Made by a program: the position numbers and the translations under genes. This document shows positions 35,655-62,385 of a DNA stretch of 64,000 nucleotides, piece after piece (position 1 is the stretch's first letter; each line of letters opens with the position of its first letter). Below the pieces are notes generated by a model. It saw only the letters and a list, made by a program, of their open reading frames with translations, did not search any database and was not told where the DNA came from. This stretch comes from a bacterium (GTDB lineage Bacteria > UBA8248): NCBI GenBank assembly GCA_022828125.1, contig JAJEJD010000012.1, forward strand, positions 65,309 to 129,308, in the 5' to 3' direction.

Positions 35655-35805
35655 AGACTCGAGGTCCATGTCAGTAATGACCCCGCCTTGTGCCGTGTGA
35701 GGTTCGCTTTGAACCCAGCTTTCGCCAGGTGGGCGTCCAAGTCCATGGCTTTAGGCCGAACTCCCCGAGAGGAATAGCTCACCACCCTGGGTCAGGACTC
35801 CCGGT
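35655..35805 (-). ncRNA. ssrS: 6S RNA candidate
   Basis: The 337-nt gap between zapA and fau has no gene, and in many Proteobacteria this gap holds 6S RNA. The minus strand can fold into a long rod. Closing pairs are GAGTCC/GGACCTC and TGACCC/GGGTCA (35794-35789 with 35683-35678). An inner GAGTTCG (35763-35757) pairs with CGAACCTC (35706-35699), and an apical ACCTGGC-GAAA-GCTGGGT hairpin covers 35730-35713. A TACTAT -10-like box lies just upstream. Position and shape fit; ends and identity are inferred. Confidence 0.5.
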
Positions 35806-35932
35806 ACAATAGTACTGGGTCAAAATGCTTTCCCCCATCACGAACACGGCAGGGTCAAAGCAAAAGAGCATTATGGCATTAAAACCTGGGGATGAATACA
35901 GGGAAAAGCTACTGCGTGAAGAAAACGACTGA

Positions 35933-53892: not shown

Positions 53893-54083
53893 CCCGCCGT
53901 GGCGCCCCGTCGAGCGCGGAGCAGAAGTTTCTCACTCCGAATCGAGGGCGTCAATCGGCGGGCGCGAATCTCGATTGACGCGGGATGCGCCAGAATCTAC
54001 TCTCTCCGAAAAGGCGAACATCATTTCTGCAGCCATGCGGGCGCGAAGTCGCCCCGGTAGCACTCAAACGGAGGGAAGCACCC

Positions 54084-55079
54084 TTGCCCAACATCGATCT
54101 GCATCACCACATCTACATCCCGGCGGCGGAAGCGCTCGCCGCCAAAGAGCGCGAAAGACGCCCCCAGCACGCCGACAGCTTCGAAGGGTTTTTCCCGCCC
54201 GTCTCCTCGCGCTACAACGCCAAGATGACGGAGGAGAACTGGGCGGTGCAACTCGCCGACGCGGAGCGCAAGCTGAGCGACATGAAGGCGGACAGGCTCG
54301 ACATGGCGCTGGCCTCCCCGCCGCCGCCCACGTTTTACTACTGGATCGGCGGAAGAGCGGGCGAGGAGATCATCCAGATACAAAACGACGGCGTCGTCGA
54401 TTTCTGCAACCAGAACGCCGCGCACTTCCGCGGCCTCTGCAACCTGCCCATGCAAAACGGGGGCGAGGCCGCAGCCGCCGAACTCGAGCGCGCGATGGGG
54501 AAAGGCCTTCTCGGCTGCATCATCTCGGACCGCATCGGCTCCCATGCGCTGGACGAGCCCCAGTACGAGGAATTCTGGGCGGCGGCGGAGAGGCTCGGCG
54601 CGCTGGTGTTCATTCATCCCGATTTCGCGGACCTGAAAGCGCTGTTCCCCTACTACATGGCGAACTGCATCGGCAACCCGCTCTCCACCACCATCGCCGC
54701 CACAAGGCTCATTTTCTCGGGCCATTTCGAGCGCTACCCGAACCTCCAGCTACTGCTCGCCCACGCGGGCGGAAACCTGCCCTGGGCGGTCGGGCGCATC
54801 CAGCACTGCTGGGAGGTGCGGCCGGAAACCAAGGTGCACACGCCGCACCCGCCCCGGCACTATTTCAAGAACCTCTATTTCGACGTCATCACCTTCAACC
54901 CCTCGGCGCTCAAGTGGATGGTCGACGAGGTGGGGGCCGACCGCGTCGTGTGCGGCACGGATTATCCTTACGACATGATGCAGCAGCGCGTCGTGGATTT
55001 CGTGGAGGGAGCGGGCCTCACCGAAGAGGCGCAGAACAAAATCCTGCGCGAGACGCCCGCCAAGCTCATGAAACTCTAG
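54084..55079 (+). CDS. Amidohydrolase-2 family metal-dependent hydrolase (ACMSD-like)
   Basis: 331 residues from TTG 54084, with GGAGGG 8 nt upstream. The HxH metal motif IDLHHHIYIP lies at the N-terminus. Further ligands are HPDF (His), LLAHAGGNLPWAVGR (His) and VCGTDYPYDMMQQ (Asp). This is the order found in ACMSD-like and gamma-resorcylate decarboxylase-type enzymes (COG2159). Decarboxylation or hydrolysis of an aromatic or related acid is likely, substrate unknown. Followed by an intergenic repeat and the MetE-like gene. Confidence 0.87.
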   Translation: MPNIDLHHHIYIPAAEALAAKERERRPQHADSFEGFFPPVSSRYNAKMTEENWAVQLADAERKLSDMKADRLDMALASPPPPTFYYWIGGRAGEEIIQIQNDGVVDFCNQNAAHFRGLCNLPMQNGGEAAAAELERAMGKGLLGCIISDRIGSHALDEPQYEEFWAAAERLGALVFIHPDFADLKALFPYYMANCIGNPLSTTIAATRLIFSGHFERYPNLQLLLAHAGGNLPWAVGRIQHCWEVRPETKVHTPHPPRHYFKNLYFDVITFNPSALKWMVDEVGADRVVCGTDYPYDMMQQRVVDFVEGAGLTEEAQNKILRETPAKLMKL

Positions 55080-58766: not shown

Positions 58767-59463
58767 GGCGCTTTCCCTTCATCTCATCAACGGTTCGGTG
58801 CAAGAGAGAAAATATCACGTCTTTCCGGTGACGCGAAACAGCCGCGTCAAATCGAATCCCGTCTCACCCCCTCCCGCCGGGAACTCGAAATTCGGGAATT
58901 AGATCCAACCTTACCGAAGGGAATCAGGTAGAAAACGATGTGAGGAAATTCTTCTCCAGTATTCCTGAGAATCTCCTCGGGAGAATTTCGTGGCTCCGGT
59001 CGCTGCGCAAGGCTTGCGGGGCGACACGGCCCGAGCATATCAGATTCGCGGGGCCGGGGCCGCGCGAATTTGGGGGCACACTGTAGACAAGCAGGGAGTG
59101 ACAAGAAAAAAGTCTTTCGATATATCAACCATAGCAGGGTTGATTACCGTCAGGACCCGACATGGACAAGTTGAGTGGACGAGGACGCTCATCGGCATCG
59201 TTCCCGGCACAAAGTCGGCGCCTGGAGGGTCGCCACCCCCTCGCGTGGCCGAAGCCATACGGGTATTGCGAAATGCCTCAGGCGCCTCATAACAGACTAT
59301 CCGTATTGATGGATTTGGTCAACCAAACAAAAATCCACACATAAAGAGATATGACCGGATTCTCGCGGGTCGTCACCAGGAACCACCTCCCTCCCCTTGC
59401 GCATATCGCCCCGTTCGTTTTTAATGGGGCGGCGTCTTATCCACCCTCATATCTGGAGTGATT
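58767..59463. other. Gene-poor stretch
   Basis: About 700 nt without a supported gene. It holds the second 31-nt repeat copy (59018-59048), an imperfect hairpin near 58939-58989 (GAAATTCT.CTCC with GGAGAATTTC), and short ORFs in both strands that look random (no Shine-Dalgarno, no domain). Possibly the decayed remains of a gene, but I cannot name one. Confidence 0.4.
59018..59048. repeat. 31-nt direct repeat, copy b
   Basis: GGGGCGACACGGCCCGAGC followed by ATATCAGATTCG. Two mismatches to copy a at 58482-58512, same orientation, 536 nt apart. Confidence 0.6.
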
Positions 59464-60114
59464 ATGCGAGTATCGGATGAATTCGACAGGCCGCCGGGGC
59501 CGCTGTTCGGGCTTTGGAGCGCGTTCTACATCGACAAGTTTCAGTTCGCGAAGCGGATGCTCATGGGCTACCGCAAGCAGCGCAAGGAGGCGTTCCGCGA
59601 CACCCTGAAGCCGGGCGAGCCGATGCCGGACGTCCGCTTAAAGACCACCGACGACGCCGCGTTCGATCTGTCTGATTTCAAGGGGGAGAAGAACATCGTG
59701 GTCGAGTTCGGGGCCATCACGTGACCCCCCTACCGCCGGCAGGTGGCCGGCGTCGAGGATTTGCAGGAGAAGTACAAGGATGAGGACGTGGTCTTCTTCG
59801 TCGTCTACTCCAAGGAGCCCCACGCGGGCGAGACGAGCCACTTCAAGAAATACGCGCAGCACACCACGTATGAGCACAAGAAACAGTACGCGCAGGAGAT
59901 GGTGGAGGAGTTCGGCATGAAGGTGCCCGTGCTCATCGACGACCTGGACGAGAGCGTCGTGCACGCCTTCGGCCGCATGCCGAACATGACGTTCATCGTG
60001 GATAAGGAAGGCAATATCGCCTACAAGTCCGACTGGATGGAGGCGGCGCGCGTCGAGGAATTGCTCGACGAGCTGCTCGCCGAGCAGAAGGCTGCGGCGG
60101 CGACTACATCCTAG
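59464..60114 (+). CDS. Deiodinase-like thioredoxin-fold selenoprotein (UGA = Sec87)
   Basis: The frame from ATG 59464 (CTGGAG 5 nt upstream) meets TGA at 59722-59724 and goes on in frame to 60114. Read as Sec this makes 216 residues. The active site reads FGAITUPPYRRQ, close to the deiodinase FGSCTUPxF motif, and ends the first strand of a thioredoxin-like fold. It is followed by YKDEDVVFFVVYSKEPHAGE, matching the deiodinase IYIEEAHA position. VPVLIDDLDESVVHAFGRMPNMTFIVDKEGNIAYKSDW completes the thioredoxin core. No membrane anchor is evident. Iodothyronine deiodination is unlikely in a bacterium; the role is probably redox or dehalogenation. Bacterial deiodinase-like selenoproteins are known. 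A hairpin 9 nt after the UGA supports recoding. Confidence 0.88.
59734..59752 (+). promoter_or_regulatory. Candidate bacterial SECIS hairpin of the deiodinase-like gene
   Basis: A perfect 7-bp GC-only stem, CGCCGGC/GCCGGCG, with a 5-nt AGGTG loop (59741-59745). It begins 9 nt after the UGA. The GGU in the loop matches the apical loop feature of known bSECIS elements (E. coli fdhF). Confidence 0.65.
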
Positions 60115-60182: not shown

Positions 60183-60500
60183 GGTTGTTGAAAAAGCCCC
60201 GTGGAGCGATTTTGGTTGTGCGCACGTTTTTGAAGTTCACTCCCCCCTTGAGGGGGAGTCGAAGAGTTGAGGGCGTAAGCCCGAAAACGATTCGGTGGGG
60301 GGTATAATCCGGAATGGCGATAAAACGCATTTCACCCCCCACCAGTTCAGCCTTCGCACAAATCGCTCGGCTTCACTGACTCCCCCTCAAGGGGGGAGTG
60401 GTACTCTTCTCTCTGCTCGGTCGACGATTCCATTCAAGGGCGCAAGCCCACAAGCGAATCGGTGTTGGGTGAATTCCGAGTGAGAAGGGACTTCTTCAAT
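60183..60500. repeat. Dispersed G/C-tract inverted-repeat element (copy 5)
   Basis: Between the deiodinase-like gene and the monooxygenase gene. TTGTTGAAAAAGCCCCGTGGAGCGA leads, then ACTCCCCCCTTGAGGGGGAGTCG, CGATTCGGTGGGGGGTATAAT, CATTTCACCCCCCACC and GACTCCCCCTCAAGGGGGGAGTGG. The first 60 nt match the complement of 3358-3418. No coding content. Confidence 0.78.
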
Positions 60501-60554: not shown

Positions 60555-61655
60555 GTGAACTCCACCGAATACGCATGGTTCCTGCCGACGGGAAGATACG
60601 GCGACGGGCACACCATCAACGCCAAGACGCCCGAGCGTCCCCCGACGGTGGAATATATATCGGAAGTCGCGCGCGCGGCGGAAGACGCAGGATTCGTGAA
60701 CCTGCTCGTGCCGACGGGCACGCATTGCCTCGACGCCTGGATGATCACCCTGGCCGTCGCCCAGCGCACGGAGCGCATCAAGTTCTGCGTGGCCTTCCGC
60801 CCCGGTCTATCGAGTCCCGTTCTCACCGCCCAGCAGGCGAACACCTATGACGCCGTAACGGGCGGGCGGCTCACCGTGAACGTGGTGACGGGCTCGACGC
60901 CCGTGGATCAGAAGCGCTACGGCGACCACCTGGATCATGCTGAGCGCTACGCGCGGACGGAGGAGTTTCTCGACGTCGTGAAGGCGCTCTGGACGAGCGA
61001 GGAGCCGGTGAGCTACTCGGGCGAGTACTACCGAATCGAGAACGCCACGCTCTACGCCAGGGCGGTATCGAAGCCGCACCCCACGATATTCCTGGGCGGA
61101 AGCTCGGAAGCCGGCCGCCGCGTGGGCGCGAAACACGCCGACGTTCACATGATGTGGGCGGTGGCGCCCGAGCAGGTCGCCGAGGACGCCGCCGACATGC
61201 GCCGCCGGGCGGCGGAAATCGGGCGCGACGACCTGCGCTTCGGCTTGAGGCTCCACATAATGTGCCGCGAGAGCAGGAAGGAAGCCCGACGCGCGGCGGA
61301 GGCGCTTTTGGAGGACAGCGCGCTCGAGAACACACGGATGTGGGCCGACCAGCGGAACCGCTCCGAGAGCGAGGGCCAGCGCCGCATGAACGAGTTGTAC
61401 GAGGGCGGCTCCCCCTGGCTCACGGATACCCTCTGGATGGGCGTGAACAAGGTGCGCTCGGGTGCGGCCGCCATGCTGGTCGGCACGCCGGACATGCTGG
61501 CCACAGCCCTTAAGGAATACGTCGACCTGGGCGTCCGCAACTTCATCCTCTCCGGCTGGCCGCATCTCGAAGAAGCCGAGATTTTCGGGCGCGAGGTGAT
61601 GCCGCTCTTAAAGGACACGAACCCGGCGCGGCTCGAACCGCAGACGGTCGCCTAG
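60555..61655 (+). CDS. LLM-class flavin-dependent monooxygenase (SsuD-like)
   Basis: 366 residues from GTG 60555. A luciferase-like TIM barrel: YAWFLPTGRYGDGHTI opening, ARAAEDAGFVNLLVPTGTHCLDAW, IKFCVAFRPGLSSPVLTAQQANTYDAVTGGRLTVNVVTGSTPVDQKRYGDHLDHAERYARTEEFLDVVKALW is the group core, and VSKPHPTIFLGGSSEAGR follows. Such enzymes use FMNH2 and O2 to cleave alkanesulfonates or similar. A flavin reductase gene lies 40 nt downstream and likely supplies the reduced flavin. Confidence 0.86.
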   Translation: MNSTEYAWFLPTGRYGDGHTINAKTPERPPTVEYISEVARAAEDAGFVNLLVPTGTHCLDAWMITLAVAQRTERIKFCVAFRPGLSSPVLTAQQANTYDAVTGGRLTVNVVTGSTPVDQKRYGDHLDHAERYARTEEFLDVVKALWTSEEPVSYSGEYYRIENATLYARAVSKPHPTIFLGGSSEAGRRVGAKHADVHMMWAVAPEQVAEDAADMRRRAAEIGRDDLRFGLRLHIMCRESRKEARRAAEALLEDSALENTRMWADQRNRSESEGQRRMNELYEGGSPWLTDTLWMGVNKVRSGAAAMLVGTPDMLATALKEYVDLGVRNFILSGWPHLEEAEIFGREVMPLLKDTNPARLEPQTVA

Positions 61656-61695: not shown

Positions 61696-62385
61696 ATGAC
61701 CTACCGCGTCTTCGACACCGCTGAAATCGACCACTCGCAGATCTACCGCCTGCTCATCGGCTCGGTCGTCCCCCGGCCCATCGCCTGGGTGAGTACGATG
61801 AGCACGGACGGCGTGGCGAACCTCGCGCCGTTCAGTTTCTTCACCATGGTGTCGCACCAGCCGCCGATGGCGTCCATTTCCGTCGGCGAGCGCGAGAACA
61901 AGCCCAAGGACACCGCGCGCAACATCCTCGACACCAAGGGCTACGTCATCCACACGGTGGTGAACGGCTGGGAGGAGGCGATGAACGTCTGCGCGGGCAA
62001 CTACGCCCCCGATGAGAGCGAGTTCGAGGCGGCGGGTCTCGATATGGTCGCCTCAGACCTCGTGGACGCGCCGCGCATCAAGGACGCCCCCGTGGCGATG
62101 GAGTGCCGCTTCGAGCGCATGATTCCCTTCGGAGACGAATGGGTGACGCACCTCGTCATCGGGGAAGTGCTGCGCTGGCACGTGCGCGAGGATCTGATAC
62201 TGACGGACGAGGAGAAAGTATACATCGACCCGGCGAAGCTCCAGCCGGTGGGCAGGCTGGGCGGGCCCCGGTACTGCCGCACGCAGGACATCTTCGAGAT
62301 GCAGGCCCCCTACATCATGCCCGACAGGGTGCACCCCAACGACCCCGCCCAGAACGACGTCCAGGCGGTGAAAAAGGAATCCTGA
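61696..62385 (+). CDS. Flavin reductase-like protein
   Basis: 229 residues of the DIM6/NTAB flavin reductase-like split-barrel family. SSVVPRPIAWVSTMSTDGVANLAPFSFFTMVSHQPP is the FMN-binding signature, and VIHTVVNGWEEAMNVCAGNYAPDESEF follows. It would use NAD(P)H to reduce FMN for the neighbouring LLM monooxygenase. Same strand, 40 nt gap; likely one operon. Confidence 0.87.
   Translation: MTYRVFDTAEIDHSQIYRLLIGSVVPRPIAWVSTMSTDGVANLAPFSFFTMVSHQPPMASISVGERENKPKDTARNILDTKGYVIHTVVNGWEEAMNVCAGNYAPDESEFEAAGLDMVASDLVDAPRIKDAPVAMECRFERMIPFGDEWVTHLVIGEVLRWHVREDLILTDEEKVYIDPAKLQPVGRLGGPRYCRTQDIFEMQAPYIMPDRVHPNDPAQNDVQAVKKES

What the first reader, a model, noticed from the sequence alone, without database searches (positions are those of the whole stretch)
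59464..60114. A bacterial deiodinase-like selenoprotein with Sec in FGAIT-U-PPY
The motif around the UGA resembles the animal deiodinase active site (FGSCTUPxF), with a downstream YSKEPHAGE matching the deiodinase YIEEAHA. UGA read-through makes 216 residues with a complete thioredoxin-like core. Where a bacterium uses such a fold (dehalogenation or peroxide removal) is open.
Basis: partly seen in the sequence, partly recalled or inferred. Interest (0 to 1): 0.8.

Follow-up and report, generated by a model that had tools for sequence, protein, structure and literature searches.

The report
Bacterial deiodinase-like selenoprotein, sponge symbiont lineage
This bacterial gene reads a stop signal as selenium-containing selenocysteine and makes a relative of the animal enzymes that strip iodine from thyroid hormone; such bacterial relatives have been known since 2005 but none has a tested job, and this lineage keeps three versions, which makes it a good place to find one.

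Summary
Window 59464-60114 (+) is one 216-codon gene interrupted only by an in-frame TGA (59722-59724). The host genome has SelA, SelB, SelD and tRNA-Sec. A bacterial-type SECIS hairpin with an AGGUG loop follows the TGA. The downstream frame is under purifying selection. All 25 aligned copies of three ancient paralogues in this phylum keep the TGA. The protein belongs to Pfam T4_deiodinase (60 bits, cut-off 27). Mouse Dio3/Dio2 are its nearest solved relatives by family profile, and Dio2 ranks first by predicted fold. The Dio relay residues Thr, Sec, Tyr, Glu, His, His are kept. Thyroxine-specific residues (Ser167, Cys168, Phe258) are not, the Arg275 clamp has no evident counterpart, and the protein has no cysteine. 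Thyroid hormone is therefore an unlikely substrate, and CxxC, peroxiredoxin and GPx active-site motifs are absent. My best reading is a monoselenol reductase, most likely a reductive dehalogenase of halogenated aromatics; peroxide reduction is a serious rival. Bacterial deiodinase-like selenoproteins were described in 2005, so this is a new member of a known kind. Its interest is three conserved Sec paralogues in sponge-derived Nitrospinota-group genomes.

The parts
59464..60114 (+). Deiodinase-like selenoprotein gene, 216 aa with Sec87; paralogue type A
59455..59458 (+). GGAG, probable ribosome-binding site, 5 nt before the ATG
   Evidence: read from sequence
59722..59724 (+). In-frame TGA read as selenocysteine (Sec87)
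   Evidence: conserved in all 25 aligned A/B/C family members and all close relatives
59734..59752 (+). Bacterial SECIS hairpin: arms 59734-59740 / 59746-59752 (CGCCGGC/GCCGGCG), loop AGGUG 59741-59745
60555..61655 (+). Luciferase-like (SsuD-like) FMN monooxygenase, conserved neighbour within the genus
61696..62385 (+). Flavin reductase-like domain protein, neighbour conserved in the genus and also in G012
53985..55079 (+). Amidohydro_2 hydrolase; in G012 it lies directly before the deiodinase-like gene

Best explanation
The gene encodes a deiodinase-like thioredoxin-fold selenoprotein; UGA is decoded as Sec through the genome's SelA/B/C/D system and the hairpin just downstream (about 0.95 likely; strong sequence evidence, no protein data). 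The protein has no cysteine, so Sec87 acts alone as a monoselenol: the selenolate, set in a Thr86-Tyr115-Glu118-His120-His133 network like that of Dio3, attacks an electrophilic atom of the substrate, and an external thiol (small thiol or thioredoxin-type partner) restores it (about 0.8; inferred). The most likely reaction is reductive removal of iodine or bromine from a halogenated aromatic compound of the marine or sponge habitat, not thyroxine (about 0.4; inference).
For: Sec decoding: machinery; TGA kept in three paralogues across six genera, no Cys form seen in the A/B/C types; hairpin with AGGU(G) loop in the same place, different stem sequences in other lineages; purifying selection after the TGA. 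Family. Active site: invariant T86, U87, P88, E118, H120; Y115, H133 and K139 invariant in 25 of 25 A/B/C members, matching Dio3 Thr169, Sec170, Pro171, Glu200, His202, Tyr197, His219, Arg225, which mutation and structure work ties to deiodination (PMC7506546, PMC11592359). No cysteine in the window protein.
Against: Dio3 Ser167 is Ala84 here (Ser167Ala lowers Dio3 activity, PMC7506546). Phe258 is Pro173, the ordinary thioredoxin cis-Pro position. Cys168 is Ile85. Dio3 Arg275 has no obvious counterpart and the loop from Glu to His is shorter (15 against 19 residues). No dehalogenation genes were recognised nearby, and no substrate, expression or activity data exist. Glutathione synthesis was not found at the family cut-off, so the thiol donor is unknown.
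Confidence: 0.45

Rival explanations
1. It is a selenoperoxidase: Sec reduces H2O2 or organic (lipid) hydroperoxides, as in one-Cys peroxiredoxins or GPx, with an external thiol; the deiodinase resemblance only reflects shared ancestry.
For: Redoxin (62 bits) and AhpC-TSA (49 bits) also match; Dio itself carries a peroxiredoxin-like module (PMC11592359); three copies per genome would suit an oxidant-exposed habitat; many marine selenoproteins are thiol oxidoreductases (PMC2398784).
Against: No PxxxTxxC peroxiredoxin motif and no GPx NQF/WNF tetrad pieces; solved-structure ranking puts Dio and ResA well ahead of peroxiredoxins and GPx.
Confidence: 0.33
2. It is a thiol-disulfide (ResA/TlpA-like) or glutaredoxin-like reductant of a specific protein or small molecule.
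For: ResA is the next nearest solved family by profile and by fold; Pro173 sits at the thioredoxin cis-Pro position.
Against: No CxxC or UxxC and no cysteine at all in the window protein; the tree puts TlpA/ResA outside the family with 100/98 support.
Confidence: 0.17
3. The TGA is a true stop or a sequencing error and the gene is a pseudogene or two genes.
For: TGA is a stop in table 11 and no protein data exist.
Against: TGA kept in three paralogues across six genera, purifying selection after it, SECIS hairpin, complete Sec machinery.
Confidence: 0.02

Closest known systems
Bacterial deiodinase-like selenoproteins (PF00837) from the Sargasso Sea and GOS surveys (PMC1088965, PMC2398784; reviews PMC9312934, PMC13188914)
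   Same: Sec- or Cys-containing bacterial PF00837 proteins with a bacterial SECIS just after the UGA; function untested
   Different: Reviews list the example with a UxxC motif; this one is UPPY with no cysteine, and occurs as three ancient paralogues in one lineage. The survey sequences themselves were not compared here.
Animal iodothyronine deiodinases Dio1-3 (4tr3, 9h48)
   Same: Best profile and fold matches; FGxxTUPP(F/Y), Tyr, Glu, His, His positions kept
   Different: No Ser167, Cys168 or Phe258, no evident Arg275 counterpart, shorter loop; bacterial in-frame SECIS instead of a 3'-UTR one; no evident membrane anchor (by eye)
ResA/TlpA thiol-disulfide oxidoreductases
   Same: Core thioredoxin fold and cis-Pro position
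   Different: CxxC absent; separate branch in the tree
NCBIfam NF038285 deiodinase_rel
   Same: Best NCBIfam match, 97 bits
   Different: Well below its 250-bit cut-off; that family is longer (347 positions)

Membership tests
Bacterial selenoprotein | In-frame UGA conserved with coding sequence on both sides | tested here: met
Bacterial selenoprotein | SECIS hairpin shortly after UGA with G in a small apical loop | tested here: met
   7-bp stem starting 12 nt after the first base of the UGA, loop AGGUG; synonymous-shuffle p about 0.04-0.07 for the window and its closest genus relatives, and hairpins in the same place in nearly all lineages; no single sequence is decisive
Bacterial selenoprotein | Host has SelA, SelB, SelD and tRNA-Sec | tested here: met
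Deiodinase family PF00837 | Profile score above the curated cut-off | tested here: met
   60 bits vs 27; all 30 aligned members match
Deiodinase family PF00837 | Thioredoxin fold closest to Dio | tested here: met
   model pLDDT 90; Dio2 first, query TM 0.64, but ResA close behind
Deiodinase family PF00837 | Thr-Sec, Tyr, Glu, His, His network | tested here: met
   T86, U87, Y115, E118, H120, H133
Iodothyronine deiodinase (Dio1-3 enzyme) | Ser167-Cys168 and Phe258 | tested here: not met
   Ala84, Ile85, Pro173
Iodothyronine deiodinase (Dio1-3 enzyme) | Arg275 or Lys substrate clamp | tested here: inconclusive
   region lies beyond the reliable part of the alignment; no clear counterpart
Iodothyronine deiodinase (Dio1-3 enzyme) | Deiodination of thyroxine | not testable with these tools
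   needs enzyme assay
Peroxiredoxin | PxxxTxxC motif | tested here: not met
Glutathione peroxidase | Gln/Trp/Asn catalytic tetrad motifs | tested here: not met
ResA/TlpA oxidoreductase | CxxC (or UxxC) | tested here: not met
   no cysteine in the protein

The most novel reading that the evidence does not exclude
A sponge-symbiont lineage carries three selenium-dependent reductive dehalogenases, related to the animal thyroid enzymes, that remove halogens from sponge-made brominated or iodinated aromatics, showing that deiodinase chemistry is bacterial and predates hormone metabolism.
Probability: 0.25. Interest if true: 0.85.

Novelty: new member of a known kind. Interest (0 to 1): 0.45.

Why it matters
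What bacterial deiodinase relatives do has been open since 2005. Here the family is present in 16 of 18 genomes of one phylum, with three ancient Sec paralogues in the window's own genome, the Dio relay residues intact and no cysteine at all, so a clean one-selenol enzyme can be made and tested on halogenated and peroxide substrates. A dehalogenase result would bear on where thyroid hormone deiodination came from.

Tried and rejected
Gene neighbourhood: LLM monooxygenase and flavin reductase follow the gene in the genus, and an amidohydrolase and a flavin reductase flank it in G012, while PNPOx and amidase follow it in G015 and relatives of both lie near it in G014. The three paralogues have different neighbours, so no pathway could be fixed. 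The tree does not resolve where animal Dios attach among bacterial relatives (long branches). Phylum searches around G023 and G065 reached only 4 and 1 genomes. Glutathione synthase: only a sub-cut-off match, possibly another ATP-grasp enzyme. A single-sequence hairpin z-score was uninformative (-0.58); comparison across relatives and synonymous shuffles were used instead.

Full report
Observation. The gene at 59464-60114 (+) reads 216 codons with a single interruption, TGA at 59722-59724, inside FGAIT-U-PPYRRQ; YSKEPHAGE follows 28 residues later. A GGAG stands 5 nt before the ATG. In table 11 it splits into an 88-residue ORF (from an upstream GTG) and a 123-residue ORF in the same frame.

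Is the TGA selenocysteine? The genome holding the window (G000, 3.9 Mb) has SelB (384 bits), SelA (576 bits), tRNA-Sec (75.9 bits) and SelD (335 bits, itself with one in-frame TGA). Seven near relatives in MAGs, six of them labelled Nitrospinota or Nitrospinae, all keep the TGA and nearly the same hairpin. In the phylum, 16 of 18 genomes match PF00837, nearly always with exactly one TGA; no control genome does. The own genome has three such genes: the window copy (type A), C15:300892-301362 (type B) and C21:40257-40664 (type C), all with TGA. The tree shows A, B and C as old paralogues spread over the genera of the family. Downstream of the TGA, dN/dS against genus relatives is 0.05-0.19. The hairpin CGCCGGC-AGGUG-GCCGGCG starts 12 nt after the first base of the UGA. 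Types B and C and outside lineages form hairpins in the same place with other stems, such as GCGGGC-AGGU-GCCCGC and GGCGGAA-GGC-TTCCGCC; a few (L078, L080) do not. Against synonymous codon shuffles single p values are mostly 0.01-0.15, weak one by one but consistent. Together these leave little room for a true stop.

What family? Pfam gives Redoxin 62, T4_deiodinase 60 (cut-off 27) and AhpC-TSA 49 bits, so one sequence alone does not decide. The family profile does: mouse Dio3 2.9e-18, Dio2 7e-16, then ResA 2e-14, peroxiredoxin Bcp 1.8e-6. NCBIfam's best is deiodinase_rel at 97 bits, below its cut-off of 250. The AlphaFold2 model (pLDDT 90, pTM 0.88) matches Dio2 first (TM 0.64 by query), with ResA close and Dio3 at 0.61. 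In the tree Dio2/Dio3 fall on the family's side of a 100/98 split from ResA/TlpA; their exact place is unresolved.

Active site. Using the Dio3 alignment: Thr169, Sec170, Pro171, Pro172, Tyr197, Glu200, His202, His219 and Arg225 correspond to T86, U87, P88, P89, Y115, E118, H120, H133 and K139, all invariant in the 25 A/B/C members (the His219, Gln218 and Arg225 lines were misnumbered and are corrected). In Dio these residues anchor the loop and relay protons, and several mutations abolish activity (PMC7506546, PMC11592359). Not kept: Ser167 (Ala84), Cys168 (Ile85), Phe258 (Pro173); no clear Arg275. The protein has no cysteine, so Sec must work with an outside thiol. Peroxiredoxin, GPx and CxxC motifs are absent.

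Mechanism. Shown by sequence comparison: Sec decoding and deiodinase family membership. Inferred: monoselenol chemistry with external thiol recycling. Guess: substrate. Reductive dehalogenation (0.4) is favoured over peroxide reduction (0.33) because the kept residues are those of the Dio relay rather than of peroxidases. One relative is from the sponge Aplysina aerophoba (bin107, PMC5649159) and other relatives' isolate names resemble the sponges sampled in PMC8163846; that such sponges hold brominated tyrosines is from my own knowledge. Neighbours are flavin enzymes and hydrolases but differ between paralogues.

Novelty. Zhang et al. 2005 (PMC1088965) found 4 Sec and 6 Cys bacterial deiodinase-like proteins and suggested a different, redox function; GOS 2008 counts 22 Sec (PMC2398784); the 2026 review says the functions of such selenoproteins remain largely unknown (PMC13188914). 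This is a new member of that kind. The three-paralogue, cysteine-free arrangement was not mentioned in the passages I read.

Noticed in passing
window 60238-60400: MITE-like element with 23-bp perfect inverted ends (CACTCCCCCCTTGAGGGGGAGTC) between the selenoprotein and the LLM gene; about 40 or more similar copies in the genome.
   Followed up: partly
L074 (G000 C15:300892-301362) and L073 (G000 C21:40257-40664): Two further deiodinase-like selenoprotein paralogues in the same genome, types B and C; type C has a conserved C-terminal tail ending TIFTARAGTAI.
   Followed up: yes
L079, L077, L092: PF00837-like proteins in other genomes with Asp or Ser at the Sec position (FGSLTDPMT, FGSLSSPIY, FGSSSDWGY), possibly inactive forms; in G003 one lies just before a Sec-containing copy.
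   Followed up: no
L080 3478-4209: Deiodinase-like protein of G210 with U-P-Y-C, the UxxC form listed in reviews.
   Followed up: no
G000:C30:4116-5078 (L095): SelD of this genome is itself a selenoprotein (one in-frame TGA).
   Followed up: no
window 35676-35858 (-): 6S RNA (Rfam RF00013, 79.9 bits).
   Followed up: no
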